A DNA stretch of 64,000 bases from Craterostigma plantagineum. Lineage: Eukaryota > Streptophyta > Magnoliopsida > Lamiales > Linderniaceae. The stretch is taken from NCBI GenBank assembly GCA_027422505.1, contig JAPQWV010000658.1, forward strand, positions 124,001-188,000. The letters are read 5' to 3'. A program made the position numbers and the translations under genes. The notes beneath the pieces were generated by a model. It saw only the letters and a list, made by a program, of their open reading frames with translations. It made no database searches and had not been told where the DNA came from. Numbering within the stretch: the first letter of the stretch is position 1; the number at the start of each line of letters is the position of its first letter. This document shows positions 3,131 to 58,200 of the stretch, piece after piece.

Positions 3131-3274
3131 TTTTAACTAGTTCTACAGTCATTCATATAAAACACGTATATCAAATAACACGTAATCACATCAATCATTG
3201 AACTTACAGGCCAGGCTGGTTCTCCAGGCTTTTGAGCGGCAGTACATGGACAGTCTGCAGAATCTAAAGCCTAC

Positions 3275-3288
3275 GCTCTGATAGCACC
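3275..3288 (-). other. Primer-binding site, gypsy copy 1
   Basis: Read on the minus strand, this directly follows the LTR end and contains TATCAGAGC, the core of the initiator tRNA-Met site (TGGTATCAGAGC) used by many plant gypsy and copia elements. The first bases are diverged (GGTGC). Position next to the LTR terminus supports the call. Confidence 0.75.
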
Positions 3289-5889: not shown

Positions 5890-5904
5890 TCATCCCCCTT
5901 AAAA
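5890..5904 (-). other. Polypurine tract of gypsy unit 2
   Basis: On the minus strand the sequence TTTTAAGGGGGATGA lies immediately upstream of the LTR start TGTAATACCC. This is the standard plus-strand priming site and fixes the LTR boundary at 5889. It is preceded by a GGGGACGAAATTC block typical of the end of Tekay/Del-type polyproteins. Confidence 0.88.
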
Positions 5905-6146
5905 GAATTTCGTCCCCGAAATTCAGTGGTGGAGGACTCACGTTCGGTTCTACGACTAGCCTTTATTCGTGTATTCCCCATACCCTCTAGGTGTACTTAT
6001 TTCTATTCTCATCACGCTTTCGCTGCGCACTCTAGGCGATAAAGAGTTTCAGAAATAGGGGCAAACCCTGGTATCAGATCTATCCTGAACCTTATTTCTC
6101 GATTAAGGGGTAACTTCGGGAGATCATTTGGAAATACATCAGCATG
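5905..6146 (-). pseudogene. Residual RT start fused to polyprotein tail
   Basis: After the protease block and a stop codon shared by both array copies, the minus strand reads [17 protein letters not shown] and PISETLYR, the start of a gypsy reverse transcriptase. It breaks off near 6010 and runs into the terminal GGGGACGAAATTC segment before the PPT. The RT core, RNase H, integrase and chromodomain are therefore missing, several kilobases compared with a full Tekay element. Because copy 1 shares the same remnant, the deletion predates the array. The unit is a gag-protease-only, non-autonomous element resembling described TR-GAG elements. Confidence 0.75.
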
Positions 6147-7767
6147 CTAATTAACTATCGTTACGCTTTTCAGTTCTGGCTGAGGTAATTCCTCCGCCTT
6201 CACCGCATATACGAGATAAGACTCACGACCGGACCTCAAAAATCGCTGAGCCTTTAGAGCAGAAATTCGTGGAACACGTGTCGAATTGGCTTTACCCGAA
6301 AAAGTGAACACCTCTTCTTCGGGCAATTGAAATATTACGACCTTCTTGTTATTATCTATAATGGCTCCGAATTTCGAAAGCCAGTCCATCCCAAAGATGA
6401 CATTATAGTCATTCATTGAGATCACAATTAGGTCGACGCTCAAATTCCTACTCTCAACGTTCATGGAGCATCCTTTTAGCACTTGGTTAGTGCCCGTCGG
6501 ATCTCTATATGGCAGAGAAACTACACAGTTACATTTAGATAAGGTAGGAGAGATCCCACCTTTGCCACGTACTTGGCCGACACGAACGTATGTGTGGCCC
6601 CAGAGTCAATTAACACGGAAGTGGGAACGTCATAGATAGTTAACGTACTCGTTACTACAAAAGGATTTGCTTCGGCCTCCTCATTTGTCAAAGTAAAAAC
6701 TCGTGCTGGCACCGGTGGAGGTCGGACTAACGGTTGATTTGGAATTTGAGGAATATTCACATGGCAAGTTATGGCATAGTGCCCAGTCTTTCCACATCGA
6801 AAACACTGCGGAGTTAGGTTCGGTCCTGTCCTACGACATACCCCGTAGTGGTAGCGTCCGCACTGTTTACACTGCGGTACGATGTTCGTGGGTCGGTTTG
6901 GAACATTACCCGGTCCCTGGTTCGCCCTCGGTTGCCAGTTTTGTTGGCCTTGTGGATTCCCGTGGTAGTCTGGACCCTTACCAAAGAACTGACGCTTCTG
7001 GTTCCCTCCTCCCTGTTGCACTTCCGTCTTTCTTTTTGCTTCTTGCGCTTTTGCAACTCTACTCTCCGCCTGTTCGGCTAGGATTGCTCGTTCAGCAATG
7101 CGTGCATAGGTCTTCCCCTCGGTGTCGTACATACTTACGTTTCGGAAGATCTCGGGTTTGAGACCTTCCAGAAAACGCTCGATCTTCAGCTCGTCGGTAG
7201 CTACTATATGTGGTGCAAACCTCGAGAGTTGCTCGAACTTGCGGATGTAATCCGCTACTGACATTCCTCCTTGCTTGAGATTGATAAATTCGTTCAGCTT
7301 CCGCGTCCTATCCGGCTCCGTAAAATATTTTCCTCGGAATAGAATCTTAAACCTTTCCCAGGTCATCGTAGTGGAATCCTCAAACACCTGAATTGTATCC
7401 CACCAGTAGCCCGCGTTCCCACGTAGCATGAATGTGGCACATGTCACCTTTTCTGTATCGGGTAAATGGCTCACAGGGAACATATTCTCGATGGTCCTAA
7501 GCCAATCCTCGGCATCGGTAGGATCGGCGGCCTCCTCAAACATAGGGGGGTTTAACCTTCGGAACCTCTCCCCGGCAGCTTCTACACGTTCTAGTCCTGG
7601 GGATGCATGATGTTCCGAAGAATTCTGACGGTGAATGAGATCATTGATCTGATCTGACTGTCGTCGGATCAGATGGTCAACTGATGGATGGTAGAATTGT
7701 CGTTAGGTGGGGATTCAGATCCCGCCCTACGACCAGAACTGCCTATCTCTCGACGTCCCTTCGGCAT
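6147..7767 (-). pseudogene. Gypsy gag-protease, array copy 2
   Basis: This is the better preserved copy. An open frame of 340 codons (6521-7543) begins MFEEAADPTDAEDW and covers the Gag capsid-like region (ERFKILFRGKYF, FEQLSRFAPH, ERFLEGLKPEIF), a basic linker, a CCHC knuckle (CFRCGKTGHYAITC) and the protease active site LIDSGATHTF. The true N-terminus at 7767 (MPKGRREIG) is cut off from it by a 2-base loss near 7675, while the G run at ~7545 keeps the correct length, the reverse of copy 1. After the protease start a further frame change leads to the FGMDWLSKFG block, which ends in a stop at 6147-6149. Each copy therefore carries different frameshifts on top of one shared stop. Confidence 0.85.
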
Positions 7768-7911
7768 TTTTAACTAGTTCTACAGTCATTCATATAAAAC
7801 ACGTATATCAAATAACACGTAATCACATCAATCATTGAACTTACACGCCAGGCTGGTTCTCCAGGCTTTTGAGCGGCAGTACATGGACAGTCTGCAGAAT
7901 CTAAAGCCTAC

Positions 7912-7925
7912 GCTCTGATAGCACC
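7912..7925 (-). other. Primer-binding site, gypsy copy 2
   Basis: It matches the site at 3275-3288, with TATCAGAGC directly after the LTR terminus on the minus strand, consistent with initiator tRNA-Met priming. Confidence 0.75.
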
Positions 7926-10019
7926 TGTGGCGACCCTACTTTTCTAACTAGGATTAGTGGCGGATTTCCGCAACGTAAGCCGCGGAAGGCCCGTCTAATT
8001 AAAACTTTTTCCTAAAATAATAAACACTAATATAAAAATTCGTCTACATCGTCATGTCTGTACACGGGCCGAAGCCCCAAAAATACCAAAAGAACAAAAA
8101 TTCCTAAAGCCGCTCCACAGGTCTTCATCCATGTACAGCACCGCCCTCAAAAGTCCGTGGAGCACCGCCACCAGCCGCCTGAGTCACGACGCGTATCAGC
8201 GTCGGACTCAGTACCTACAACACGTAAACACTGAGCAATTTGCCCAGTAGGTGAATGAAATGCATGTATGCAAGTGTGCACTCAATCCCAACCCCCATAT
8301 CTCACATGCCAATGGACACTCTTTCTTTTCCCACATCATATCTCATCTCATACAACACAGGGCCCTAGGTCAGGCTCGGCACCCACGCGCGCAATAAATA
8401 TCATGGGTGGTCACGTGATTCCACCCGTATCCAATATCATGGGGGATAACACCCATATCCAATATCATGGGTGATAACCCATAGTCATGGCGGTCAGACC
8501 CGTATCAGTACCATGGGTAATATATCAATATACCCGTATCAATATCAGCGGTATGCACCTCCAATCGACCACATCCGAGTAGACAGATCGATCACGTCTG
8601 TCTCCGCTAAGTGGCCTGCGAGCCCAACCTCAAACAATAGTCAAAATCATTTCATTCTACCCCAATCGTTCGTATATCAAATCATCACCGTATCGCTACG
8701 GTGGAAACCATCTCTCAACCTGATGTGATATGCACATGCTATGGATATAAGCGTAATAACATATAAAACATGATTCATATCAAATATATGTAAAAACACA
8801 TAAAACACGTATTTCACATAAATCACTGAATCACATAAATCACATAAGTCACATATGTGTTTACGCATTGTAGATGGATGATCCACCTACCTGTCCTACT
8901 GCTAGCGTCAAATAAAAGTCCGGTGTTTTCACTATTATTATCAAACATTTCGATATTCTACAAGCTATCATACTTCGACATTTTATATATATCGACATCT
9001 ATCTATAATAAAAATACAACACGCAAACATACCTCGAAATCATTAGTGGTACTATACTTCGACATCTATCTTTCGAATTTATTACATACCTCGAAATCAT
9101 TAGTGATATTATACCAATTCGAGATCTAAAAATCGTGATCCTCCCAAAAACCTAAAATCAGTACTATCAAAATCATCTTCAAAAAATCATTTCTAATACA
9201 AAATACGGTACACCTTAAATTTAACCTTCATTAAAATTTCATATACTCCAAAATTCACATAAATATCGAAACCTCGTTAGATAGCTCATATGATTATTAG
9301 TAAGCTTCTAATATCAGGGTTTCTATCCATAACAGGTTTCGGACCTTCATGATACTATCGACAATTAAAACTCATACTCTACCATATGAATACCCATAAT
9401 TATGAATTAGAATTCGGAAATCCTAGGATCTTGACAGAATATCCTCGAAAGTCTTCAGTTGTTTACCACATAATCATGTGAGTGTATATTCATATCGAAA
9501 ATAGTCTAAACATATTAAGCGTGGGGAATTTTTCATATACCTCTTCTTCACAGCTTTTGGATTGGTTATTGACCTTAGTCGAATTTCTCCCTTCTTGGCT
9601 CGAGAATGGTTGTTCTCCTCTTTTTAATTCTAATCTTCTTAAGGTTTCTTTATACTGAATCGTTACTTCAATAGGTATGAATATTATCTCTTAAAAACTC
9701 GTGTGATAAGACAAGGTGCTGACGTAAATTTCCTTAACCTTAAGTAATGTGGTAAACCTCATCATACTTTAATATCTTTAAGCCACCTTTGGGCCTCATT
9801 CACATTTAAAGTATAGCTTATTCATTTGTTGAAGTCTTACAGATACTATTTAAATTTCCTATAAGTCCAAACGAATTTATCCCCATATAATATTTTCTTT
9901 AAATTGGCCAAATCTTGAGAATGATTCTTATTACAGTATTTAAAACACATATTATGTAAATTTCGTTTAACTATATATCTAATTATATCGAATCCCGTAT
10001 TAAATTTACGGGTATTACA
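7926..10019 (-). repeat. Tekay-like gypsy LTR, array copy 3 (internal deletion)
   Basis: It has the same termini as the 2.6-kb LTR (TGTAATACCCG and GGTCGCCACA on the minus strand). It is 2094 bp because ~515 bp are missing at about 8923, where ccggtgt runs straight into ttcactatta. It is the outer 5' LTR of the array. To its right, from 10020, comes ccggccggaaccggccgg, which is not LTR sequence. The other outer end lies outside the window, so target-site duplication cannot be tested. Confidence 0.85.
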
Positions 10020-19213: not shown

Positions 19214-21701
19214 TCGGCTTCGGTTGGACTTGATGTAACTCAGTATGCTTTTGATGTTGAAGAATACCCGACGAAAGTTGCTTCGAATACTTTAGGGTCG
19301 AACTTTGCACGTTGCTCTCTGTCGTTCGCCACAAAGCACTTGCACCCGAAGACTTTAAGGAATGAGATGTGGGCACTCTATTGATCACAATCTCGTACGG
19401 AGTCATGTTGAAACGTTTGTGAACCACTGTCCTGTTTTGGGTAAAACAGGCGGTATTGACTGCTTCAGCCCATAGAAAGTGCGGAAGTCCTGAATGGATC
19501 AGCATTGTACGAGCTGCTTCCACTAGTGTTCGGTTTTTCCTTTCAACGACCCCGTTTTGTTGAGGTGTTTTGGCGGCTGAAAATTGTTGACTTATTCCAA
19601 GTTTCTGATAAAACGCACTGAGGTGGTTGTTCTTGAACTCAGTGCCGTTGTTTGTTCGAATAACTTGAATAGTCTGTTGCAGCAGATTTTGAGTAGTGTT
19701 CACAAAGTTGATAATCAAGTCACCGGTCTCATCTTTGGTTCGGAGGAACTTTGTCCACGTGTAGCGAGAGTAGTCATCAACGATCACTAGCACATACTTT
19801 CTTCCATTGATACTCTGAGTCTACATCGGCCCACAGAGATCCATGTGTATGAGTTCCAATGGTCGAAAAGTAGACGCAATTTGCTTGACGTGATGAGATG
19901 CTCGCTTTATTTTTCCCAATTGACATGCCGAATACTGATGCTCCCTTTGTAGTAGTATAGTTGGAAGGCCGTGAACCAACTTTTTTGTAGAAAGACGTTG
20001 GAGAGCTTTCATATTCAGATGAAACAGTCGTTGATGCTATAGGCTGTTCCTCAGTAAATCAATCTGAGAGATGAGGCATACAGCTGTCGAGGGCCGCACG
20101 GACGTCAGGTTGATCGTGTAAAGATTGGATTTGCGAAGTCCTTGAAGGAGTTCTATGTCCTGACTATCCAAAATTCTGCACCAGTCAGCATGAAAGACCA
20201 CCTGAAACCCTTTGTCACAGAACTGGCCTACGCTGAACAAGTTATGGTGGAGGCCTTCGACATACGAGACATCCTTTATTGTCAGTTTCTCCAGAATGAT
20301 ATCTCCAAATCCAATAAGTGGAGCTGAGTCATTGTTTCCGAATCTGACTTTGCCGTTTGGTCGGTCTTTGTAGCTGCTCAGTAGCTCTTGATTACCAGTC
20401 ATGTGTGTGGAGCAACCAGAGTCGAGGTACCACACATGATGGATCTCTTTTGACGAAGTGGATGCGTTGTCGTCGTCCGTACGATTAGATGTTTCGGCGT
20501 CCGATTCATTGTCGAGACGGGCCATGAGAGCTAGATTCTCTTCTTCATAACTCGACGTGCTCGAGCCATTGGTCCTGTTCGGCCATGAGAGCTCTCCAGC
20601 TTCCTTCTGTTTCGTCAATTGGAGCTTCCTGGAGTAGTAGTTGGCATCTATTTCTTTGGAAGAGTGCACTCTCTGGCGAAGTGACCTGGCTTGCCACAAT
20701 TGAAGCATTTGTTAGCCTCCTTAGGGTTCTTGACTTCGGAGTTCTTTGGTGCATGTTCTTTGTTTTTAGAGCTTGTAGTCCGAAGTCTGTTGGCTGAGGT
20801 TGAAGACTTCTTCTTGAAGTACTTCTTGCTCATCATTTGTCCTATGAGAGCTAACTGCTTTCCTAGAGCTTTCAAATTTGGCTCAACATCGGAGTCTGAC
20901 TCTTCTTCCGACTCTGAAGGTGAAGGAGGCCTAACGATCTTTTCCTTTCTTGATCTTGAGCTCCTCCTCTCCGAAACTAAGGCAACAGTGTCTTCGGTCT
21001 GTTTGCCTTTCTGCTCTTTGGCAACCTCGCTGATATCATGCTCATGCTGTGCGAGATTATCAAACACGGCATGGACATCCAACTCCCTCTAGATCTTTAT
21101 TTTGTCGAATCTGAGTGGATATTTTCTTCCAATCCGCAGGCAGAGAAGATAGAAATTTGATGTTTGTCTCCATATTGGTCTTTGTGATTTCTATCTTCCT
21201 CATGTCGTTGAGAAGAGTGATGTATATTTGGTAGATCTCGTATAGATTCTCCTCCAGCTTTGCTTTGAAGGAGTCATAAGAAGTGAGAATGTTAGCGTTT
21301 TTGGCCTTTATGCCAACTTCCGTCCTCTGCATCATCCTATGCAGTTCATCCCACATTCCTTTTTCCGATGAAAGGCTATCAATCTGTCTGTATATGTCAT
21401 TGGGGATGCCCTGCATGCGGGTATTCATGGCTACTAGATCAGCCTTAGTTCGAGCCCTTTCCTCTAGAGAGTATTCCCTAGGCTCCTTTAGTCGACTAGA
21501 AGGTGGAATTGGAGGAGTAGCTATTCAATCTCCGGGTACATGGACCCAGAATTGTGCCGGGTCCTCTTCAAGAGACTGCAGTAGATTTTCAGCTTGATCT
21601 TTTAAGGCGATGAAATTTAGGAAGCGGCTTCTCCACACGGTATATTCGCCTCGTTGCAAAATCGGCGGACGGTTGTCATTTCCGGGCGAGTATGCATCCA
21701 T
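19214..21701 (-). pseudogene. Copia A gag-protease-integrase (truncated; lacks coil segment)
   Basis: Read on the minus strand from 21701 (MDAYSPGNDNRPPIL). Gag contains EYTVWRSRFLNFI, the NTRMQGIPNDIYRQI block and a CCHC knuckle (CFNCGKPGHFAREC). A TGA at ~21525 and frameshifts near 21090 and 20650 interrupt it. Gag then passes directly into protease (HHVWYLDSGCSTHMTG, active site intact), the pre-integrase region, the integrase zinc finger and the core (VIVDDYSRYTW; the usual RTDNG is RTNNG; PQQNGVVERKNR). It breaks off at 19214 inside integrase, so RT and RNase H are missing. Unlike B and F there is no coiled-coil Gag extension: the frame is continuous across 20444/20445, exactly where B has GT...AG borders. 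The second DDE aspartate is replaced by asparagine. Confidence 0.88.
20444..20445 (-). other. Exon-junction-like seam in copia A
   Basis: On the minus strand A reads ...TCAAAAGAG then ATCCATCATGTG. The left half aligns with the B sequence before its GTAGTC and the right half with the B sequence after TTTTTGCAG. The seam is what splicing of the B-type segment would leave. The shared AG dinucleotide means a 2-bp microhomology deletion would give the same product. Confidence 0.7.
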
Positions 21702-22762
21702 TTTGTATTTTAGTCGAGTTGCTGAAGGATCTTCGTTAAGTGTTTTGTAGGTTTGAAGATGATATAATGGCTTCACAAGTGACAAAGTTCGTTAGTAGCG
21801 TTTGATTCGAAAAATTAGTTCGAGAATTATTTTCGATTCAATCTTTGAAGTTTGATTGAAAATAATTTCGTTGAAATAGAATATACTCTGTACTGTTCTC
21901 GTGCGAGAAAGTTTGTCAGCGAAATATTTTACGAGCGAAATAAATTGCTCAAAATTGTTTGGTCGATAAAAATTTCCTGATCATGAATTTATTTCGATCG
22001 TAAAGAAACAGTACGTTAGTAAGGTTCTCGACAAGTCAAAATAAATATGTTGACTAGAAACGTTTTATCGCGTGTAAATGATTTTCGCCTGGTCAAACGT
22101 TAAAGGTGACCGAAAAAGTTTTTCGAGAGATAGTTTTTACGCATGCAAAGTCAAAATTGGTCTCTCACGAAAACGTTTTTCGCTGAATAAAGCTCCAGAA
22201 ATGTTTCTAACTAAAATCGTTTCTAGTGATGACGATTCTAGCGCTGACTTCGTATTCTGACCGAGAAAAATTCTCGCGCCAAGTTTTTCGATCGAGAAAC
22301 TAATCCGACCGTTAACCTAGCGAGAAAAATTAGAACGATCGAGAAAAATTCACAGAATACGATTAACACGGATTCAAGCAAAAACAAGGAATTAGACAGT
22401 GAAATTTCAGGTAATTGCCCGCAATCAATCACTAACTACGCACGAACAAGCAATTAAACACGTTATGAAGCAAAATATGTCAAATTTGAGCAAAATCAGA
22501 ATGTGTTCTTCATGTTCTTCGCAAACAGTAACTCACAGGATTGATTTAATCCTAAATCCGAAGTTCAAATAGCTACGAATTTGATCGAAATCAACATTTA
22601 GCACTTAACCGAGCACAGAAACATCAAATTCAAGTCAATTAAGCACAGAATTATGCTATTGGATCGAAAAAATTCGCGCCAAACTGTTCTTCGATGAACA
22701 GTATCCAGAAAATGATTTTCGATCCAATTCTAACAATTTTTGATTCAAAACAGAACGAATCT
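21702..22762 (-). other. Copia A untranslated leader
   Basis: It is about 1.06 kb between the gag start and the PBS. It is AT-rich and full of tcgatcgaaa/cgagaaa words, without a credible frame. It matches the leader of copy C (51975-53046) in length and in scattered blocks such as cacattatgaagcaaaatatgt. Confidence 0.75.
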
Positions 22763-22774
22763 GCTCTGATACCA
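22763..22774 (-). other. Primer-binding site, copia A
   Basis: The minus-strand sequence is TGGTATCAGAGC, a perfect initiator tRNA-Met complement, two bases from the LTR end (CCTAACA). Confidence 0.92.
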
Positions 22775-22776
22775 AT

Positions 22777-23121
22777 TGTTAGGTCCTACGATTAACAAAT
22801 CTAAGATCCTAGGCAAGAATTCAAAGTAATTCGACGATAATGATAATCACTAAGATTCGATCGAAAAACTCATTTGAAGAACGAGAGACAGAATTCAAGT
22901 AGAGTGAGAAAGTTACTGTTGCTTCTCTCTCTAGAAATTGAATTGCAAGCCTTTCGGATCAATCTTCAAACTTTTTTCAGCACAATTTCTTTACATGTAT
23001 ATATACCAAACAAGCTCGGTATAAATATCAAACTAGTCCTAATCTAAGGACTACTACACAAAACGCCCCAAATTACAAGAACAACTAATAAAATCAAGCA
23101 GAATTAGAATGGTATTCTACA
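22777..23121 (-). repeat. Copia LTR, 345 bp (5' LTR of copy A)
   Basis: It is bounded by TG...CA (minus strand TGTAGAATACC to GACCTAACA). Length is close to the other copia LTRs here (346 and 363 bp). A TATA-like motif, GGTATATATACA on the minus strand, lies at about 22990-23001. Its outer boundary at 23121 abuts copia B RT coding sequence with no PPT. That fits insertion of A into B's RT, or an internal deletion of B ending exactly at the LTR. Confidence 0.78.
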
Positions 23122-25681
23122 GATAAATATTCCATCATTGAGCTGCCTGACTTGAAGTCCTATGAAGAATTGCATCTCTCCCATGTGGCTCATTTTGAGT
23201 TTACTCTTCATGAGATCTCCAAACTTCTTGCAAAGTCGTGTTGTTGAACCGAAAATGATGTCGTCGACGTAAACTTGAACGACCATCAGATCCTTGTCTT
23301 GCCATTTGATGAAGAGGGTCGTATCGATTGTTCCTCGAATAAATCCAGACATTACGAGGAACTCGCTCAAGACATCATACCAAGCACGTGGGGCTTGTTT
23401 TAGTCCATAGTGAGCTTTATCCAATCGATAGACGTGATCGGGATGTTCTTGATCAACGAAGCCATCTAGTTGAGCGACATAGACTTCTTCTTTAAGTACG
23501 CCATTGAGAAAGGCGGTTTTAACATCCATTTGATAGACCTTGAAGTCTTTATAAGCCGCGTAAGCCAAAAATAGACGAATGGCTTCAATTCGGGCAACAG
23601 GAGCATACGTTTCGTCGTAGTCAATGCCTTCCTGTTGGTTGTATCCCTTGGCAACTAATCGTGCCTTGTTCCGGATCACTTCGTCATCTTCATTCTTCTT
23701 GTTCTTGAATACCCATTTTGTCCCCATGATAGTTTTCCCATGCGGACGGGGTTATTTCCACACTTGAAGGCGTTCGAATTGGTTGATTTCCTCTTCCATT
23801 GCAATTATCCAATCCGGGTCTCGTAGTGCGTCTGCTACTTTAGTAGGCTCGTTTTGACTTAAGAAGCAGCTAAAAAGACCATGTTGATGTCGTGTCCTTA
23901 CTCCGCTCGAAGGATCGCCAATTATCTGATCAACCGGATGAGCTCTAGTCCACTTGCGCTCATGTGGCAAAGCTGAAGATGAAGCATCAGCCATTTGTGG
24001 GTCCGATTGTTCATTTGTGTGGGGAAGTTCCATATCTGCACTGGCAGGGAGCGACTCTGATGATTCTTCCTCAACACCCATGGTAGGTTCTTCAATGTGC
24101 TGTGGCAAATCTGAATCGGGTGAGGTAGGGACTGTTGAAGAACTTGGTACATAGGCCTCATCGGGTATAGTATTGACGGTGAGAGGCTCAAAGAGGGAAT
24201 CCAAGTCTTCTAACACAAGTCTTAGCGCTTCATCTGGCGGTGATCGCTGAGTTGTTGCCATCTTCTGTTGGTTTTGTGCCAACACACCAGTGAATACGGG
24301 CTCTAAGATGTTGTCTTTAGAAGCCGACGGGTTAAGCGCGGGTCCTGAACTGGTTTGTTCAGAAGCCATCGGGTTTGGCACGGGTCATGAACTGAGGTGT
24401 GCAAGAGCCATCGCATTCACTTCGTGAAAAGTGACGTTATAGCTTTCAATGATCGTGCAGTTGGACTTGATGTATACTCGGTACGCTTTTGAGGTTGAAG
24501 AATACCCGACGAAAGTTGCTTCGAATGCTTTAGGGTCGAATTTTGCTAGTTGCTCTCTGTCGTTCGCCACAAAGCACTTGCATCCGAAGACTTTAAAGAA
24601 TGATATGTTGGGTACTCTCTTATTAACAATCTCGTACGAAGTCTTGTTGAATCGTTTGTGAACCACCGTCCTGTTTTGTGTAAAACAGACGGTATTTACT
24701 GCTTCAGCCCAAAGAAAGTGTGGAAGGCTGGAGTGGATCAGCTTTGTACGAGCGGCTTCCACTAGGGTTCTATTTTTCCTTTCAACGACCCCATTTTGTT
24801 GAGGTGTTTTTGCGGTTGAGAATTGTTGACTAATTCCAAGTTTCTGATAAAATGCACTGAGGTATTTATTCTTGAACTCAGTGCCGTTGTCTGTTCGAAT
24901 AACTTGAATAGTCTGTTGCAGCAGATTCTGAGTAGTGTTCACAAAGTTGATAATCAATTCCCCTGTCTCATCTTTGGTTGGGAGGAACTTTGTCCAAGTA
25001 TAGCGAGAGAAGTCATCGACGATAACTAGCACGTGTGCGTCCATTGATACTCCGTGTCTGCATTGGCCCACAGAGGTCCATGTGGATTAGTTCCAATGGG
25101 CGAGAGGTAGATGCGATTTGCTTGAGATGATGAGACGCTCGCTTCATTTTTCCTGATTGACATGCCGAACATTGATGCTCCTTTTGTAGTAGTATAGTTG
25201 GAAGACCTTGAACCAACTTTTTCGTAGAAAGACGTTGGAGAGCTTTCATATTCAGATGAGACATTCATTGATGCCATAAGCTGTTCCTCTGTATGACAGT
25301 CTGAGAAATGAGGCATACAGCTGTCGAGGGCTGCACGGACGTCAGGTTGATCGTGTAAAGATTCGATTTCCGAAGTCCATAGAGGAGTTTTGTGTCCTGA
25401 CTATCCAAAATTCTGCACCGGTCAGCATGGAAGACCACTTGAAATCCTTTATCACAGAATTGGCCTATGCTGAACAAGTTATGGCGGAGGCCTTCGACCT
25501 AAGAGACATCTTTTATCGTTAGATTAGACAAGATAATATCCCCGCATCCAAGAATGGGAGCTAAATCATTGTTTTCGAATATGACTTTGACGTTTGGTCG
25601 GTCTTTGTAGTTGCTCAGCAACTCGTGACTTCCAGTCATGTGTGCGGAGCAAACTGAGTCGAGATACCACACATGATGGAT
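23122..25681 (-). pseudogene. Copia B protease, integrase and RT (3' truncated)
   Basis: The minus strand encodes, in order, protease (HHVWYLDSVCSAHMTG, where the expected DSG triad is DSV), the pre-integrase domain (HHNLFSIGQFCDKGF), the zinc finger and a well-kept integrase core. That frame, 24385-25071, has VIVDDFSRYTW, RTDNGTEF and PQQNGVVERKNR, so all three DDE residues are visible. A long acidic linker ends in RKWTRAHPVDQIIGDP. RT (23104-23727) has [26 protein letters not shown] and VYVDDIIFG. It stops after [14 protein letters not shown] sequence at the LTR boundary, so the end of RT and all of RNase H are lost. Minor frameshifts occur near 23750, 24385 and 25040. This is the best-preserved integrase in the window. 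Confidence 0.88.
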
Positions 25682-27482
25682 CTGCAAAAACATGTTAGAG
25701 AGCTTTAGGTACCCACTTAAGTATGGGTCCTCTCAGATTAGTAGATATAGTTTACGGTTCAGATATGATTCCTAAATTTTTACTTGAGGGAGTTTTAATA
25801 ACCCATTTCACTTTCGGAGAAGTGGGTTTGGGTTTTGCCTCTTTAGGTGACTTGGCCTTTTCGGTTTTTTCTCGTCCTAGGCGGAGATATAGGAACCCAT
25901 TTGGGTTGAACCTTGCAGGGAAGGTTAATTTCAGCAAGTACAAATGCTTTGGTAGGTTTTACCGAGGAAAAGATATTTTCTTTTGATAATCTCCTAAGGT
26001 GCTTTGGGGACTCAATCTTTACGAGATACCTTAGGTGAGAACAGGCATGTACAGCGCCATAAGCTTTCTTTATGGCTGGATCTTGTTTCTTACGGGTCTT
26101 CCTTGTGGCATTTGTTTCCGAATGATTATGTTTAGCTTTAGATGTAGAGCCAATTTCGAAATTAGTACTTCTAAGAATGGTAGGCTGTAGAGTACATGTA
26201 GAAGCAATTATTTGAAACGATGGCTCATTTATTTTTACGAGTGTCATTTATTTGTACAGGAGTAACATCTTAGGCATACTCAAATCCACTAGCTCCTTCT
26301 TAAGACTAGACACTCTCGCCTTCGATTCTAGTGCTTGCCCTACGCGCCCTGTAGACGTGGGTAAATAGATTTAGGCTTAGCTATTTTAACAGAATTATTA
26401 ATGCACTTTTGATCTTTCGAAGGTGATTTTTTGATTTTTCACGCTTTCCATAATAGCCTGAGAGGTAGTTTGGGAGGATGAGGAAGTGTTAAGATTTTCC
26501 ATCTCCTTTAAGAACTTTTTTTTCAGCTTCGAAATTCTCTCTTTCATTATCTAATTTTGCTTGAGAATTCCTCTATCTGTTTTATTATGGGAGGTATGTA
26601 AAGAGAATATTTATAATTAACGTCTTTGGATTCCTCGTGGACTCTTTGAGGGTCAGGAAGTTGAAGTAAGTCAGAGACAGGTGATAATGATGGTTTCATA
26701 TTTCTGTCTCTTTCATTTAGTGATGTGTACTCAAGGGGGATTTCAGGCCCGTGTGAGGCTTTTCTCATGGATGAATCGAAAGTATTTTGGTACGTCGATT
26801 CAGTAAAATCTCTAAGAGAGGTTACTCCTAAACCCATGTGCTTAATATCATATATTTCTTTCTTCCGTAGAACACGTGGGTTAGTGAAATCTAAGCCTTC
26901 CTTTGGATTATAGAAGTCTACATCCTTGGGCTGATTTAGGAATATCATCTGTTCGGATTGTCCCATACGCGTGACTATATCATCTAATTTCTTAATTTTT
27001 GCATATAGTTTCTTGCGTTCCTCACCTAGGAGAGCATAATTATTTTCTACCGTCAGTTTGGCGGCTTGACAGGCATCTAGTTCTTTACTAAGCTCACTAA
27101 CCTTAGCATTATATATTTCTAATTGAGTTTCCAAGTTAGTGATCTTAGTGGTAGTTTCGGTTATCCTACAATTTAATGTGGCTTTCTCATTGAGATTCCT
27201 AACCAAACAATTGTAGTTATTTGCTAGCCTATCTTCTAATTCCTTAATCTTTTCGCTATGCTGTCCTGTCTGAGGTTGACTAGTCTCTCTAGAATGTAGG
27301 CTCTTAGTAATTTCTTCAATTTTAGCACTAGAGCTTCTAAGTTCTGATTCGAGAATGTCTATCTTCTCCTGAGACCTCGAAAGTTTATCCTCTACTTCCT
27401 TAATACTTTTCTGCTCACGTCATGTTAGCATATTGTTTTTATATGATTCTAACATGGTCAATAATGTGGAAGAAGAGACTAC
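25682..27482 (-). other. Candidate intron carrying coiled-coil Gag extension (copia B)
   Basis: On the minus strand the segment is bounded by CAAGAG|GTAGTC and TTTTTGCAG|ATCC, both in phase 0, and copy A lacks exactly this part. Inside, the Gag frame continues as a heptad-rich coil (26547-27206, e.g. KLDDIVTRMGQSEQMIFLNQ) and a basic region. It ends with WVPKAL and a TAA at 25695-25697. That TAA is part of CTCTAAC, a branch-point-like string 13 bases before the cut. The protease frame is offset by one from this Gag frame, so readthrough alone would not reach protease. Stops at ~27420 and frameshifts near 26550 and 26250 mark decay. Splicing itself is inferred, not shown. Confidence 0.6.
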
Positions 27483-28736
27483 CTCTTGTGATGGGATGGA
27501 TGCGTCGTCATCGTCCGTCTGGTTTGAAGTTTCGGCATCCAGGGTGTCGTCCAAGCGGGCAATGAGGGCTAATTCTCCTCTTCTGAGTTGGACGTGTCTT
27601 TGAGCCAGTGGTCCTGCTCTGCCATGAGGGCTACTCCAGCTTCCTTCTGCTTTGAAACTTGAAACTTTCTGGAGTAGTAATTAGCATCTCTTTTCTTGGG
27701 AAGAGTGCATTCTTTGGCAAAATGACCGGGCTTGCCCCAGTTGAAGCACTTGTTAGGCTCTTTGGTGTTTTTGATTTCGGAGCTCTCAGGTGCATCTTCT
27801 TTATTTGTAGAGCTTGAGGTCCGAAGTCGGTTGGCCGAAGATGAGGACTTCTTTTTGAAGTACGTCTTGCTTATCAATTTGCTGATGCCAACTGCTTCCC
27901 CAGTGCTTTCATGCTTGGCTCATCGTCTGTCTCGGAATCTTCTTCTGACTCTGATGGGGAGGCATGCCTAACAATCTTCTCTTGACGAGACCTTGTTCCA
28001 CTCTTCTCTGAGACAAGGGCAACAGTGTCTTCAATCTGCTTGCCCTTTTGCTCCTTCTGAATCTCGCAAATATCTTCCTCATGTTGGGCGAGATTGTCAA
28101 AGACTGCATGGATATCCAACTCCTCCAAATCTTTGTTTTGCCTAAGTTGAGTGGATATCTTTTTTCCAGTCTGAGGGCAGGGAGGATAGAAATCTTATGT
28201 TTGTTTCCATGTTTGTCTTAGAGATTTCTATTTTCCTCATCTCATTAAGAAGGGTGAGGAACCTTTGATATACGTCATATAGGCTCTCCTCCGGCTTTAC
28301 TTTGGATGAGTCATAAGCCGTGAGAATATTGGCCTTTTTGGCCTTGATGCCCACTTCCGTCCTTTGAATCATTCTATGCAGTTCATCCCACATTTCTTTA
28401 GCCGTTGGGAGGCTGTCTATCTGTCTATAGATGTCGTTGGGGATGCCCTGCATGAGTGTGTTCATGGCTATTAGATCTGCCTTAGCGCGGGCCCTTTCCT
28501 CGATGGAATATTCCCTAGGCTCCTTCAGTCGCCTAGCAGCGGGAATATGAGGAGTAATCGTGTCATCGTCGGCTAGTGACCCAGAATTGTGCGGGCCCTT
28601 CTTTGAGTGACTTTAGCAGGTTTTCGGCTTGATCTTTCAAGGCTATGAAATTTAGGAAGCGACTTCTCCAAACTGTATATTCGCTGCGTTGCAAGATCGG
28701 CGGACGATTGTCATTTCCTAGTGAGTATGCATCCAT
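27483..28736 (-). pseudogene. Copia B gag, N-terminal two thirds
   Basis: It starts at 28736 with MDAYSLGNDNRPPIL, then EYTVWRSRFLNFI, the MNTLMQGIPNDIYRQIDS block, ESLYDVYQRFLTLLNEMRK and a Lys-rich segment. The CCHC knuckle is mutated to CFNWGKPGHFAKEC (second Cys to Trp), which should abolish zinc binding. Frameshifts sit near 28570, 28140, 27875 and 27585. The last codons before the candidate donor are acidic (TDDDDAS), like copy A. Confidence 0.85.
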
Positions 28737-29345
28737 CTTTTCTTTCTTTGTGGTAGAGTTGATGAAGGATCTTCGTTAGTTTTGATGGATGGATTTTGAT
28801 GTAATATGCTTCACAAGTAGCAAATTTGTCAGTATCGTTTGATGTTGAAGCAGTCGAGAATTATTTTCGATTCTATCTTTAGATTTTCGATCGACAATAA
28901 TTCAATCGAGCTTATGTCACTGTTCTCTTCTGAGAAAGTGTGTCAGCGAGAAAATTTACGAGCGAGAAATTTCTGCGATCGAAGACTTTAGCCAGAAAAA
29001 TTGAAATTTTGCGAATGAAATCAGAACCCTAATTAAACTTGATTCAGCCAAGTACAATGAATTAGACTATGAACTCGCATGTTTCAGTTCGTAATCAGAT
29101 GTCTAGTACGCACGAACAGACAATTAAACACATTATGAAGCAAAATATGTCTTAATCAAATTCAAAATGTGTTTAAGTATGTTCTTCGTGCAAACAGTGA
29201 CGATTCAAATCTGATCTATTCTGCAAAATTGATATTCAAACCGCTACGAATCTAATCGCAATTGATCTAACATACTTATGTGAGCACAATTTTGATCTAA
29301 TTAAATTAAAATTTAATTTTCACTGTTTGCGAGCGAGAAAGTTCT
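28737..29345 (-). other. Copia B leader, truncated
   Basis: It resembles the leaders of A and C (cgagaaa words, cacattatgaagcaaaatatgt near 29130) for about 600 bp. It then loses similarity near 29345, before any PBS or LTR. The 5' LTR of B is missing and spacer sequence of copy E follows directly. Confidence 0.65.
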
Positions 29346-35515: not shown

Positions 35516-36410
35516 CTGCAAAAACAAGTTAGAGAGCTTTATGTACCCACTTAAGCATGGGTCCTCTCAGCTTAGCAGATATAGTTTTAGGTACGGATAT
35601 GATTCCTAAATTATTTCTTGAGGGAGTCTTAATAACCCATTTAACTTTCGGAGAAGTGGGTTTGGGTTTTGCCTCTTTAGGTGACTTGGCCTTTTCGGCT
35701 TTTGTCGTCCTAGGCAGTGATTTAGGAACCCATTTGGGTTGAACCGTGCAGGGAAGGTTAATTTTAGCACATACAAATGCTTTGGTAGGTTTGACCGAGG
35801 AAAAGATCTTTTCTTTTAATAATCTCCTAGGGTGCTTGGGGGACTCAATTTTTGAAGTAGAGCCTATTTAGAAATTGTCGCTTCTAAAGGTGATAGGCTG
35901 AAGTGAACAAGTAGAAGCAATTATCTTAATAGTAGAAATGGCTCTTTTATTACTACGAGTGTCTTTTATTGTAACAGAAGGAGTAACATTCTTAGAAACA
36001 ATCAATTCTACTTGCTCCTTCTTTATCTTAATACTAGACACTCTCGCCTTCGTTTTCAGTGCTAGCCCTACGCTCCCTGTAGACGTAGGTGACATAGAGT
36101 TAGTCATAGCACTTATAACAGAATTATCTTTACATTTTTTATCTTTTGAAGGCGATTTTTCAATTTTCATGCTTTTCATATTAGCGTGTGAGGTAGCTTG
36201 GGAGGATGAGGAAGCTTTGAGATTTTCCATTTCTTTAAGAAACTTTTTCTTTTCAGCTTCGAATTTCTGTAGTTCTTTATCTAGTTCAGCTTGAGATTCC
36301 TCTATCTGTTTTATAATAGGAGGTATTTAGAGAGAATTTTTATAATTAACGTCTTTGACTTCCTCGTGGTGTGTTTGAGAGTCAGAACCCGTATTCACTG
36401 GTGTGTTGCT
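35516..36410 (-). pseudogene. Copia E Gag C-terminal extension (partial)
   Basis: It corresponds to the last third of the candidate intron segment of copy B: a Ser/Lys-rich region (SSSQATSHANMKSMKIEKSP), a block homologous to B near 35930-36230, then a GPMLKWV-type end with TAA at 35529-35531. The 3' border is TTGTTTTTGCAG|ATCC, with the stop again inside CTCTAAC. The coiled coil and everything upstream are missing. The copy is cut at about 36410, where plus-strand copia F begins. Confidence 0.7.
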
Positions 36411-37533: not shown

Positions 37534-39011
37534 GTATACACTCCATCCCTAAATGATTTCGTTAAACTTGAACGTAGGATAGCCGAACTCTCCATGCATC
37601 CTAAAGATTACTCAGAACTCCAAAGCAATTTTGACAAAAATTATGCCTTACTAAACAAACAACAGGAAGAGATAGCCATTCTTAATGAATCCTTGACCTT
37701 GTCTGAAACTAAAGCAAGGACTTTAGAAGATCTTAAAGAAAGCAAGGAAAAAGAAATTAGCGATATGTGTAGAAGCTTGAAAGACAGCGAAGAAGAACGA
37801 CAAAATGTATTGTCTCAGTATGAACTAGTCACCAACAAACGTGTTCGACTATACAAGAAAGTAAAAGACTTAGAGGACATCATCACCAAAAGAGGTCAAA
37901 GTGAATGAACCATGTTTCTTTGCCAACCTAAAGATGTTGAATTCTATGATCCTTGCGAAGGATTGGGATTTGAATACACCACTAAACCAGAGACAGATAA
38001 AGTACTCTCTCTGTACAATATTAAACGTTTTAGATTGAGCCTTGAACAACTAAGGCCCTTCGTTGGATCAAGCGAGGTGACTACACAGAACTCAATGATA
38101 GCTACAAAACTAGAGAAATAACCATCTCTGATGATTACATGTCACCATTTGGACCCGAAATTCAGGAAAGCACTGGCGAGCAGGATAGACCCATTTATTC
38201 ATTTATCAACATTCCAGAAAATATTCACAATATAGGCGATCTAACGACCTCTCTGGAATCAGAAAGGAAAGCCCATGAAGAAGTGAAAACTATATTATTA
38301 AGCAAAATCTATACTCTTGAAAACTATCCTAACGCTCACAAACCTTCCACTTCACGTCCTGTTCCCGAAACCTCGACGTTTAAATACGAGCAAACTACAA
38401 AGAAAACTTTCTTATCTCACACTAACTCTGTATCGCGTGTACCCACAGACAAAGGCGTGAGTTCCAAGGAAAAGAAGAAGGTTAAATCGGGCTCAGTAAA
38501 TAAGAAAATTGTCCCTGATAAGAAAAAGAAACCAGCCTCGAATCTTGCTTCTCATGTTCTCAATTCCTTTATATTTCCAAAAGTGACTTATTGTCGTGTC
38601 GCAGATCGTGTTACCTTATTTTATACTCAAAAACTTAAATATCGTTATGTAAACAATGATGTACTGCCACATCCTCATAACGATATGTTATGCGAAAAGG
38701 CTTCCATGTTGCCCAGCTCTCGCTCTGTCGATGCGTCTCCCGAGCTCAACAATCACACTCGCAAATCTAAGAGGGAGAAAAACACCACTTCCCAAACCAA
38801 GCACAATAAGAAGTTAAATCAAAGACAAATTTGGATCCCAAAATCCCAACTACACACTTTAGGCAGTGGTCGTTTCTGGGCTCATAAGTCATCTCTTCAG
38901 CAATCTAACGAAGAAACCAATATAACGACAAATACGTTGGATTCCTCTCCTGTGATTAAAGTAAGACCTGTTTTTAAATGGGTCCCTAAGCTAACCTGAT
39001 TTATTTGGCAG
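37534..39011 (+). other. Candidate intron with coiled-coil Gag extension (copia F)
   Basis: It is bounded by GAG|GTATAC and TTTATTTGGCAG|GTCC, phase 0 at both ends, at the same codon positions as in copy B although the sequences are well diverged. Within it the Gag frame runs on as a coil (37540-37905, then DVEFYDPCEGLGF) and a Lys/Ser-rich region. It ends FKWVPKLT with TGA at 38997-38999, 12 bases before the border. GCTAACC and CTGAT just upstream fit branch-point consensus. Stops at 37906 and near 38120 are decay. It lies on the opposite strand from B, so the shared borders are a property of the family rather than of one copy. Confidence 0.6.
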
Positions 39012-43240: not shown

Positions 43241-43370
43241 GTTTAATATTTAGGTACGTCGATTCAGTAAAATCTCTAAGAGAGGTTACTCCTAAACCCA
43301 TGTGCTTAATATCATATATTTCTTTCTTCCGAAGAACACGTGGGTTAGTGAAACCTAAGCCTTCTTTTGG
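43241..43370 (-). pseudogene. 130-bp copia Gag-extension scrap
   Basis: The minus strand encodes EGLGFTNPRVLRKKEIYDIK and the following GVTSLRDFTEST, nearly identical to 26790-26910 in copy B. It is wedged between truncated gypsy integrase and an exact LTR start, so it is either the target into which the LTR inserted or filler from a break-repair event. Confidence 0.85.
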
Positions 43371-51162: not shown

Positions 51163-51974
51163 AAGTATTTCCACTTAACGTTTTTCCGATTAAAGCCAAC
51201 TGCTTCCCCAGTGCCTTCATGCTTAGCTTGACGTCTGATTCTGAATCTTCTTCTGACTCAGATGAGGAGGGAGGCCTAACGATCTGCTCTTTCCGAGGCT
51301 TTATTCCACGCTTCTCTGAGACTAGAGCAACGGTGTTGTCAACCTGCTTGCCCTTCTGCTCTCTCTGTCTCGCAAACATCTTCCTCGTGTTGGGTGAGAT
51401 TATCAAAAATTGCATGAATATCCAACTCCTCCATATTTGTTTTATCTAAGCTGAGTGGATATCTTTTTCCAGTCCGAGGGCAGAGAGGATAGAAATCTGA
51501 TATTTGTTTCCATGTTCGTTTTCGAGATTTCTATCTTCCTCATCTCATTGAGAAGAGTGAGGTATCTTTGATATACATCATATAGGCTCTCCTCCGTCCT
51601 CTGCATCATCCTATGCAACTCATCCAACATTCCCTTAGCCGTTGGGAGGCTTTCTATCTGTCTATAGATGTCATTGGGGATGCCTTGCATGAGTGTGTTC
51701 ATGGCTATCTGATCAGCGTTCGCGCGGGCCTTTTCCTCGATAAAGTATTCCCTAGGCTCCTTAAGTCGCCTAGTAGCGGGAATTTGAGGAGTAGCCGTGT
51801 CATCACCGGCTATGGTGACCCAAAACTGTGCAGGTCCCTCTTCGAGTGATTGCAATAAATTTTTGGCTTGATCTTTCAGAGCTATGAAGTTTAGGAAGCG
51901 GCTTCTCCAGACTGTATATTCACCGCGTGCAAGATCGGCGGACAATTTTTATTTCCTAGTGAGTATGCATCCAT
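51163..51974 (-). pseudogene. Copia C gag (C-terminally truncated)
   Basis: The start at 51974 reads MDAYSLGN-like, then a frameshift near 51940. An open part (51442-51945) follows with EYTVWRSRFLNFI, FWVTIAGDDTATPQIPATRR, MNTLMQGIPNDIYRQI and ESLYDVYQRYLTLLNEMRK. About 33 codons present in A and B (VGIKAKKAN...) are missing after MMQRTE, an in-frame deletion. A frame change near 51440 leads to the Lys/Ser-rich part (51125-51415). The copy ends before the CCHC knuckle at about 51187, next to the plus-strand LTR. Confidence 0.85.
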
Positions 51975-53046
51975 CTCTTCTTTCCCCCTTTTTTTTGTTG
52001 ACGAAGGATCTTCGTTTGTTGTTTTGATGGATTTGAGTGATATTATGTGCTTCACAAGTAGCAAATTAGTTAGTAGCGTTTGATATTAAAGCAGCCGTGA
52101 ATTATTTTCGATTCTATCTTTAGATTTTTGATCGAAAATAATTTAGTCGTGACTAAAATTTATGTTACTGTTGTCGTGCGAGAAAGTGCGTCAGCGAGAA
52201 ATTTACGAGCGAGAAAAATTTGTTCAAAAGTTTTCGATCGAGAAAAATCTTTTAATCGTGAATTTATTTCGATTGCAAGAAACAGTACTTAAGGTAGGTT
52301 TCTTGCTTAGTCAGAATAACTCCGTTGACTGGAAAAGTTTTTCGATCGTAAGTAATTTTTCGCTTGGTCAAACTGTATTAGTTTTCACCGAAAAAAATTT
52401 CGACGGTATGTTTTGCGAGCGCAAAAGGTCAAAATATGTCTTCGTCAAAAAAGTTTTGCACTAAGTAACGCTCGAAAAAATTTTCTACTAAAATCGTTCT
52501 TAGTAAAGACGATTTTAGCGTTGACTTAGTGTTCTGATCGATAAAAATTCTTGCGCGGAGATTTGCGATCGAGTTTCTGCGATCGGAAACTTTAGCAAGA
52601 AAAATTGAAGTCCCGCAAATAAAATCAGAACCCTAATTAACCATGATTCAACCGAAAACGATGAATTAGACTATGAAATCGCAGGTTTCTGCTCGTAATC
52701 AGATGTTTGATTCGCACGAATAGACAATTAAACACATTATGAAGCAAAATATGTCAATTTTAATCAAAATCAAACTGTGTTCAAGTTTATTCTTCGCGTG
52801 AACAGTAACCATTCCAATCTGATCTATTCTGCTAAATTGATATTCCAACTGCTATGAATCTAATCGCCATCGATTTCTATTGCTAGAACAAACACGGAAA
52901 CATCAAAATCAAATCAGATACGCAAAGAATTAGGCAATTCAGATCGAAAAACTATTTCGCGCCAAAACTGTTCTTCGCGTGAACAGTTCGAGAATGTAAA
53001 ATTCGATCCGAATTCTAACAATTTCGATTCAAACCAGAACGAATCT
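51975..53046 (-). other. Copia C untranslated leader
   Basis: It is 1.07 kb, matching A's leader in length and motif content (gcgagaaa, cgatcgagaaa, cacattatgaagcaaaatatgt). Numerous start codons and stops; no conserved frame recognised. Confidence 0.75.
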
Positions 53047-53058
53047 GCTCTGATACCA
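53047..53058 (-). other. Primer-binding site, copia C
   Basis: The minus strand carries TGGTATCAGAGC, a perfect initiator tRNA-Met match, two bases from the LTR end. Confidence 0.93.
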
Positions 53059-56589: not shown

Positions 56590-58200
56590 TGCTCTGCCGC
56601 TCGCCCTTGATCATGTATGTGGAGCAACTATCATCGAAGTACCACACATGAGGGAATTCTGCAAAACTATCGGGACTTTGGTACCCATTGTCGTATGGGT
56701 CCTCCCTTATTAGCAGAAATTGAGTTAGTCGTAAATCGTGTAAAATTAGATTGTGCGCCTAAGTTGGCTGAAGATGTAGTCTTAGGAGTCCATATTTGAC
56801 TAGGACTTTCTGACTTGATATCCGACTTAGGAATCCATTTTTGCTTGATTTTAAACGGATAAGTAATCCTAGCATGTGTATATGTGCTCCTAGAATGTGT
56901 ACTTGTAAAGGTCTCCTCAGTACCCAGTCATAATAAATGCTTTTCGGAACGAATATTGACTGGATATTCATGTAAGAATACGAGCAAATAGAGTGATAAA
57001 CATGTAAAGTAGAATTGTCGTAATTCCTACGTGGAGAATGCACATTTTTCACATGAGAATTAGAATTTCAAAAATTATGTTCAAGTCTAGGCTTTTTAAG
57101 TGAAAAGTTAGTAGAATCATTTGAAACACACGATGAAGTTTGTGCGCTAGAATCTGAATTATTTTCGTGAAAAATTTTCTTGGTGGAGACAGAGCCACTT
57201 TCAAAGTTTGTACTTCTAAAATTCATAGGCTTTAACGAACATGTAGAAGTAACGGCTATAGAAATTGGAGTATTTGATCTACTAGCGCTCAAAGCCTCTT
57301 TATCTTTCTTAACCTGCTTAAAGATTACTTTTCTTGTGAGGAAGCTTTGAAATTAGATATTTCCAATAAAAACGCATTCTTTTCCGCTTCAAAATTCTTT
57401 CTTTCCCTTTCTAATGTTGAATTTAAATCCTCAATTTTCTTAAGAATAGGAGGTATATCGACGGAAAAGAATTTTCATAATGACGAGATTGTGCTTCCTT
57501 GGTCTTAGAAATCGCAAGAAGATTTACTAATTGATTAATCTTAGAATAGAGCTTCCCACATTCTTCTCTTAAGAAAGCATAGTTATTTTGAGCAGTGCTC
57601 TTCTCGGCTTGACAAGTGTCTAGACTCTTAGTTAACTCACTTATCTTAGAATTAGATTTTTCTATTTGAGCTTCGAGACTGGTGACCTTTTTGTTCACAC
57701 CTTCTATTCTACATTTAAGAAGACTTTTCTCGTCTAGATTTCTAAGTAGACATTTATGGTTGTTGTCTAGCCTGTCCTCTAATTCCTTGACTACCGAGCT
57801 ATGCTTCTCTAACGAAATATGCTTAGCCTTGCTAAGAGTTGAGCTCTTAGTTAAGTTCATCTATTTTCGCACTAGAGCTCATAAGGTTAGATTCGGAAGT
57901 TTCTAGCTTAGATTCAAGACTAGAGATCATATCGAGAGCACTAGCTAGTCTTAATTCTAACTCTAGTTTGACTTTGCATTCTTCTATGGAATTTCTACCT
58001 CTACATGCATCCTGATTTTCCTCTACTTGGACTACATCAGCATTTTTGCTAAGTTCCTTAACCTTAATTTCTAAGGTTTCTATCTTAGCCTCGAGTGTTC
58101 TAACATTTTCAAGTTCATTCTTATTTTTTTCATAATGTCTCACTGCCGAATTAAAATTGATTGTTACATGGTCTTGTAATATTTTTATATTTGGATCCAT
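56590..58200 (-). pseudogene. Copia D Gag coiled-coil extension and protease stub
   Basis: From 58200 the minus strand reads a long charged coil (ETLEIKVKELSKNADV, SALDMISSLESKLETSESNL). After a frameshift at 57860 the coil continues (57423-57860, including SSVVKELEDRLDNNHKCLLR and ITSLEAQIEK-type heptads). A Ser-rich part (57068-57292) and a GPIRQWVPKSR end follow, with TAG at 56667-56669. Then comes TTTTGCAG| and a degenerate HVWY...CST protease start that fades at ~56590. It corresponds to the B candidate-intron segment plus acceptor. N-terminal Gag, CCHC knuckle and donor are missing, and integrase to RNase H are deleted downstream. Confidence 0.78.

What the first reader, a model, noticed from the sequence alone, without database searches (positions are those of the whole stretch)
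20444..27482. Copia A lacks exactly a GT...AG-bounded segment present in copia B
Seen: on the minus strand B reads CAAGAG|GTAGTC ... TTTTTGCAG|ATCCATCATG over 1801 bp (25682-27482), and A reads AAAAGAG|ATCCATCATG with Gag fused in phase to protease. The more diverged, oppositely oriented copy F has the same border codons (GAG|GTATAC ... TTTGGCAG|GTCC; 37534-39011), also phase 0. Known: spliced gag RNAs have been described for BARE and EVD copia elements, and an intron for Ogre gypsy elements. Inference: this family has a true intron encoding a coiled-coil Gag extension, and A derives from reverse transcription of the spliced RNA. A deletion using the shared AG dinucleotide is the alternative.
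Basis: partly seen in the sequence, partly recalled or inferred. Interest (0 to 1): 0.88.

Follow-up and report, generated by a model that had tools for sequence, protein, structure and literature searches.

The report
Retrotransposon intron that hides pol
A very abundant plant jumping gene appears to carry a built-in intron that codes for an extra tail on its coat protein and ends in a stop signal, so that cutting the intron out is probably what switches on its enzymes; scattered copies lacking exactly that intron look like fossils of the cut RNA.

Summary
The join is not private to A. In the host genome (1.71 Gb) the intron-end 19-mer occurs 3210 times and A's 17-nt join 48 times, A included. 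In one exon-1 class of 814 copies, 37 are joined at the same base. A shifted-join control gave 0 of 100 listed. In a gag tree, joined and intron-bearing copies intermingle; one origin is rejected (p-AU 1.3e-7).

New: in all four window copies with the 3' end (B, C, F, H) and 98 of 100 listed genomic copies the intron's reading frame stops two codons after a WVPK-like motif, just before T-rich sequence and the acceptor. Pol lies beyond, mostly out of frame.

Best reading: a spliceosomal intron in a copia Gag-Pol gene. Unspliced RNA gives Gag plus extension, spliced RNA gives Gag-Pol: the reverse of BARE1/EVD, in logic like Ogre. A belongs to a coil-less sublineage with many copies. No RNA was available; splicing is inferred.

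The parts
20445..21938 (-). copy A, exon 1 (gag) up to the join ...AAAAGAG
   Evidence: aligns to B 27483-28965; PF14223 in ORF 21060-21524
20444..20445 (-). copy A, base-exact join GAG|ATCC where the intron is absent
19223..20444 (-). copy A, exon 2 (start of pol, protease side)
   Evidence: aligns to B and C; PF22936 in the ORF that spans the join
22763..22774 (-). copy A, exact TGGTATCAGAGC primer-site motif
   Evidence: that the motif fits tRNA-Met is recalled
22775..23121 (-). copy A, probable 5' LTR of about 350 nt
   Evidence: in 10 of 10 joined loci the similarity to A begins at 23106-23124, and L016 has 22771-23121 again downstream; no LTR pair found
27483..28965 (-). copy B, exon 1 (gag)
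25682..27482 (-). copy B, proposed intron (1801 nt), GTAGTC...TTTTTGCAG
26547..27419 (-). copy B, open stretch of the Gag extension (coil-like) in the gag frame
   Evidence: matches Asteraceae Gag extensions in frame 0
25695..25697 (-). copy B, stop TAA two codons after WVPK
24460..25681 (-). copy B, exon 2 (pol)
35516..36385 (-). copy C, 3' part of the intron (5' part missing), stop TAA at 35529-35531
37534..39011 (+). copy F, proposed intron (1478 nt), GTATAC...TTTGGCAG, stop TGA at 38997-38999
56659..57909 (-). copy H, degenerate coil and 3' end of the intron, stop TAG at 56667-56669
51195..52220 (-). copy G, gag fragment with a primer-site motif at 53047-53058, ends before the junction

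Best explanation
The segment is a spliceosomal intron of about 1.5-1.8 kb inside the Gag-Pol gene of a very abundant copia (Ty1) family. Its frame continues gag, codes for a coil-like Gag extension ending in WVPKxx, and then stops. Unspliced RNA, which is also the genome that is mainly copied, therefore yields Gag plus extension only; pol sits behind the stop and mostly out of frame. Removing the intron joins gag to pol in phase 0 and makes Gag-Pol. Now and then the spliced RNA is itself packaged and reverse transcribed, leaving coil-less copies with a base-exact join. Shown here: the anatomy, the conserved stop, the recurrent base-exact join, the intermingling of the two states. Inferred: splicing in the cell, the protein products, and the purpose (setting the ratio of Gag to Gag-Pol). 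I put about 0.9 on a true intron with retrocopied spliced RNA and about 0.65 on the switch role.
For: Intron-end 19-mer 3210 times, A's join 48 times, reversed controls 0. Exon-1 class GCATCCACNTCNTCACAAGAG: 814 copies; of 100 listed, 87 go on with GT, 5 are joined, 8 carry a one-base change or one-base deletion of the donor; 37 joined genome-wide in four alleles, each allele also seen with GT. Of 373 matches to [AGT]AG before exon 2, 62 of the 100 listed are joins with 25 different 15-nt exon-1 ends, 38 are intron ends with changed CAG. Shifted joins: 115 matches with a letter other than G before exon 2, and all 100 listed are intron ends by eye. Gag tree: single origin of joined copies rejected, p-AU 1.3e-7, at least 4 changes forced (19 joined, 6 intron-bearing rows). 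Stop after WVPKxx in 4 of 4 window copies, in L050 and L074 and in 98 of 100 listed of 3084. Donors of other copies: GAG|GTGGAT (L048), AAG|GTAAAT (L060). Six of 120 listed plant proteins, all named as Tanacetum, join the homologous codon straight to the protease.
Against: No RNA. Six plant gene models are predictions. F-type acceptors: 12 matches, none joined. The H-type copy L064 has GC, not GT, at the donor place. H, L050 and L074 have 11, 8 or a one-base-short stretch after CAG, so in those copies the join would not be in phase. T content is not clearly raised in the intron (B 0.249 against 0.172 and 0.274; F 0.256 against 0.208 and 0.249). No branch point was established. Gag and pol trees conflict, so recombination has happened and can explain part of the intermingling. 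In one search one of 24 followers has another breakpoint (donor into the intron by the look of its letters).
Confidence: 0.85

Rival explanations
1. One DNA deletion through the shared AG arose once and was spread among gag lineages by recombination (template switching or gene conversion).
For: Gag and pol trees conflict: in pol, intron-bearing B and C group with joined L004 inside joined copies (99/97), in gag B lies outside all 47 joined rows. Intron-bearing L083 and L084 lie inside a mostly joined gag clade.
Against: Joined copies keep the exon-1 letters of intron-bearing relatives right up to the join (TCACAAGAG in L076 and L082, TCTCAGGAG in L078 and L048), so crossovers would have to fall within a few bases of the join again and again; 25 exon-1 ends among 62 joins.
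Confidence: 0.07
2. The joined form is ancestral and the coil segment was inserted.
For: Some intron-bearing rows nest among joined rows.
Against: The diverged F has the segment; Asteraceae relatives have a homologous coil there; intron-bearing copies far outnumber joined ones; insertion would have to recur at the same base.
Confidence: 0.03
3. Pol is expressed from unspliced RNA by +1 frameshift, bypass or internal entry, and splicing is incidental.
For: Pol has one prevailing phase after the stop, the one of B, in 89 of 100 listed; PMC2829016 passages report pol in +1 and proposed bypass or internal entry in sireviruses.
Against: The phase differs in 11 of 100 listed and in F; recoding does not predict base-exact coil-less copies; the join restores phase 0 in A, and would in B, C and F.
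Confidence: 0.25
4. Repeated independent DNA deletions through the AG microhomology.
For: AG is shared by both borders.
Against: No shifted or alternative coil-less join in 100 of 115 listed or among the 100 listed of 814; a two-base homology is far too common to give one outcome each time.
Confidence: 0.02

Closest known systems
[quoted passage not shown]
   Same: Partial splicing removes a segment so that the rest of pol can be translated (passage of PMC6317226).
   Different: Gypsy element; intron lies after protease; the region between its two ORFs averages 274 bp in that passage. Here a copia element, intron before protease, 1.5-1.8 kb and itself coding.
BARE1 and EVD (copia) spliced gag RNAs
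   Same: Copia elements using alternative splicing at the gag/protease border to balance Gag and Pol (passages).
   Different: There splicing makes the Gag-only RNA and unspliced RNA makes Gag-Pol; here the reverse is inferred.
Sireviruses
   Same: Large Gag with zinc knuckle and predicted coiled coil, pol often in +1 to gag (passages of PMC2829016).
   Different: No intron mentioned in the passages seen; average LTR 1.28 kb there against about 350 nt here; RT tree not tested.
Asteraceae copia polyproteins (Tanacetum, Arctium, Centaurea)
   Same: Gag, zinc knuckle, homologous coil, WxPK motifs, protease; gene models often place an acceptor just before the protease.
   Different: Only predicted proteins were seen, not DNA or RNA, so whether they hold the same intron is open.

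Membership tests
Copia (Ty1) LTR retrotransposons | copia-type gag | tested here: met
   PF14223 above cut-off in gag ORFs of A, B and F
Copia (Ty1) LTR retrotransposons | order protease-integrase-RT-RNase H | not tested
   only the A junction ORF was scanned (PF22936); the order integrase before RT in B was read by eye
Spliceosomal intron | GT...AG borders kept in related copies | tested here: met
   87 of 100 listed GT; 3210 intact intron ends; exception L064 GC
Spliceosomal intron | base-exact absence in retrocopies | tested here: met
Spliceosomal intron | spliced RNA | not testable with these tools
   no transcript data on hand
Ogre | intron between protease and RT of a gypsy element | tested here: not met
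   copia-type gag; intron lies before protease
BARE1/EVD type spliced gag | spliced form encodes Gag only | tested here: not met
   the joined form of A is open from gag into protease; judged on DNA, not RNA
Sirevirus | large Gag with zinc knuckle and coiled coil | tested here: inconclusive
   zinc knuckle in F (PF00098); coil-type Pfam matches only below cut-off; no coil predictor was run
Sirevirus | pol in +1 relative to gag | tested here: met
   B, C, H by sequence and the same phase in 89 of 100 listed; F differs
Sirevirus | place in the RT tree, multiple polypurine tracts | not tested
   no reference set or 3' ends were analysed
Bianca | half tRNA-Ile primer site | tested here: not met
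   A and G have an exact TGGTATCAGAGC (motif recalled as tRNA-Met type); the Bianca feature is from a passage of PMC6317226

The most novel reading that the evidence does not exclude
A whole branch of coil-bearing plant copia elements, including the Asteraceae families, uses intron retention as its Gag switch: the coil extension is a retained intron with a built-in stop, and splicing makes Gag-Pol. This could also answer how elements with pol in +1 behind a long coil-bearing Gag express pol, for which bypass or internal entry had been proposed in sireviruses.
Probability: 0.4. Interest if true: 0.88.

Novelty: new variant of a known kind. Interest (0 to 1): 0.77.

Why it matters
How copia elements make more Gag than Pol from one gene is an old question. 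The plant copia cases in the passages I saw splice to make Gag; here splicing would make Gag-Pol, and the intron itself carries protein code and the stop. With 3210 exact intron ends in one genome the family is a natural library of splice-site variants, with a readable record of which were spliced and copied back. Coil-less copies in number suggest that the extension is not needed in cis for copying.

Tried and rejected
Read-through or frameshift as the sole route was set aside because the phase after the stop varies. A single deletion was set aside on the trees and exon-1 letters. T-richness as support was dropped. LTR pairs and target-site duplications of ten joined copies were sought and none was found; that they are separate insertions rests on the differing sequence next to the element end. 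F-type joins: 0 of 12. Protein searches with coil pieces of F and B found nothing at E 0.001. Viral and prokaryote collections gave nothing. could not see joined copies because its last letter excluded G; one search counted them. In one search the row for A's exon 2 was out of frame; put right, 29 of 56 differences are at third positions. The pattern RN14ATCC... did not complete and was dropped.
Full report
What was checked. Copies A and B align in two blocks that abut in A and lie 1801 nt apart in B. B reads CAAGAG|GTAGTC and TTTTTGCAG|ATCC, A reads AAAAGAG|ATCC, and a frame of A runs across the join from gag into protease. F shows corresponding borders on the other strand. The coordinates of the finding are right.

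What else is in the window. C and H also hold the 3' end. In all four copies with that end the coil frame stops two codons after a WVPK-like motif: TAA in B and C, TGA in F, TAG in H. Then come a short T-rich stretch, CAG and the protease. Relative to that stop pol is in +1 in B, C and H and in frame in F (read from the sequences). The coil frame shows more third-position differences than a third: 30 of 66 for C against B (p 0.027), 43 of 89 for B against H (p 0.0024), 10 of 15 for B against F (p 0.0085). Pol gives 31 of 55, 40 of 60 and 20 of 31, gag 54 of 84 and 30 of 47. So the segment was probably a selected coding sequence for part of its history, less strongly than gag and pol.

Splice signals. 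B's donor ranks 8th of 108 GT sites by matches to U1 and 2nd by duplex energy, F's 8th of 116 and 4th. B's acceptor ties for first of 280 AG sites and F's is listed 6th of 206, on a crude score of my own. GC falls in the segment (B 0.376 against 0.483 and 0.434; F 0.385 against 0.441 and 0.465); T is not clearly raised.

The genome. The window lies in an unnamed assembly of 1.71 Gb in 6262 contigs. A's 17-nt join occurs 48 times with A, reversed control 0. The intron-end 19-mer occurs 3210 times, control 0. A pattern for exon 2 preceded by [AGT]AG occurs 373 times; of the 100 listed, 62 are joins with 25 different 15-nt exon-1 ends and 38 are intron ends whose CAG has changed. The exon-1 end GCATCCACNTCNTCACAAGAG occurs 814 times; of the 100 listed, 87 go on with GT, 5 with exon 2 and 8 with a one-base change or one-base deletion of the donor. 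Genome-wide this class has 37 joins in four alleles, and each allele is also seen with GT among those 100. Followers that do not start with G and are not joins number 24: 23 are one- or two-base variants of the donor and one, on C30, has another breakpoint whose letters resemble the intron some 40 nt further on (read by eye). When a letter other than G is required before exon 2, 115 matches appear and the 100 listed are all intron ends by eye. Where it was looked for, the join is fixed to the base; the lists are capped at 100.

More copies by sequence. Donors: L048 GAG|GTGGAT and L060 AAG|GTAAAT. The H-type copy L064 has GAT|GCAGTG at that place. Acceptors: L050 (WVPKSH, TAA, TTCTTTTTTGCAG) and L074 (WVPKAL, TAA), the latter with L060 in one copy whose intron is 1710 nt. 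H, L050 and L074 have lost phase after CAG. Ten of ten joined loci inspected begin their similarity to A at 23106-23124, next to differing sequence, in several cases another copy of the family.

Independent events. The 48 joined copies include duplicates: L038 is 99.8-99.9% identical to A and L024 and L033 share 5 kb at 99%. A's type is a coil-less sublineage with many members. In a gag tree of 20 joined and 7 intron-bearing rows the two states intermingle (6 changes, 3 forced). Without the two longest rows, L081 and F (19 and 6 left), 5 changes are needed, 4 forced, and one clade of joined copies is rejected with p-AU 1.3e-7. Joined L076 pairs with intron-bearing L082 at 97/93, and joined L075 with L083 at 88/76. 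These rows were chosen by me: 13 of the 48 A-type copies, 7 other joined (6 without L081) and 7 intron-bearing (6 without F). In the pol tree (46 joined rows, B, C) B groups with joined L004 and C at 99/97 inside joined copies, while in the gag tree (47 joined rows, B, F) B is outside the joined ones. Recombination is therefore real here and may account for part of the intermingling. Against it as the whole story, joined copies keep the exon-1 letters of intron-bearing relatives up to the join.

The stop. Of 3084 matches to TGGGTACC...TTGCAG|exon 2 the 100 listed were read: 98 keep a stop at the seventh codon, and the phase on to pol falls 89, 6 and 5 in the three classes. The pattern itself asks for TGGGTACC, so copies that lost it are not seen.

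Relatives elsewhere. A search with the junction ORF of A gave 535 proteins; of the 120 listed all but P0045 (Cuscuta) and P0094 (unnamed) are named as Tanacetum, Arctium or Centaurea. Several printed have gag, zinc knuckle, coil, WxPK and protease in that order. B's and F's segments match 23 and 11 of the 120 in frame 0; C's and H's match none. Six models (P0011, P0018, P0033, P0073, P0085, P0116) join the codon that corresponds to our donor straight to the protease, while others go on with V into the coil. They are gene predictions. P0045 has coil and protease in one frame.

Mechanism. Unspliced RNA gives Gag with its extension and stops; spliced RNA gives Gag-Pol. The intron persists because unspliced RNA is what is mainly copied; spliced RNA is copied now and then. 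This reverses BARE1 and EVD, where splicing makes the Gag RNA (passages of PMC3735527, PMC8892269 and PMC12786077), and resembles Ogre in logic (passage of PMC6317226). Passages of PMC2829016 report large coil-bearing Gag and pol in +1 in many sireviruses, with internal entry or bypass proposed. An intron of this kind would be a simpler answer if those elements share it, which is untested.

Novelty. Nine paper searches showed no title or abstract start that describes a coding, stop-bearing intron between gag and protease of a copia element. Of seven papers I saw passages only. Gao 2003, Havecker 2005, Steinbauerova 2008 and Oberlin 2017 were not held, so prior description cannot be excluded.

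Noticed in passing
43247-43370: A 124-nt piece 96.8% identical to B's coil (26783-26906) lies near a gypsy-type element.
   Followed up: no
1-10019: Several blocks repeat at 97-99% identity in direct order, a recent local duplication.
   Followed up: no
L038 and L072 (G000:C658:91810-104826): A and B have near-identical counterparts (99% or more) 40 kb away on the same contig, in the other orientation: a segmental duplication.
   Followed up: partly
L004; window B and C: Gag and pol of the same copies group differently in trees, which points to recombination between lineages.
   Followed up: partly
genome G000: An AAATGAG-type coil-less join makes up 24 of the 62 joins listed, so coil-less lineages other than A's are repeated too.
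   Followed up: no
L048, L064, L066: Coil-less elements lie next to coil or H-type sequence at the element end, as if nested into other family copies.
   Followed up: no
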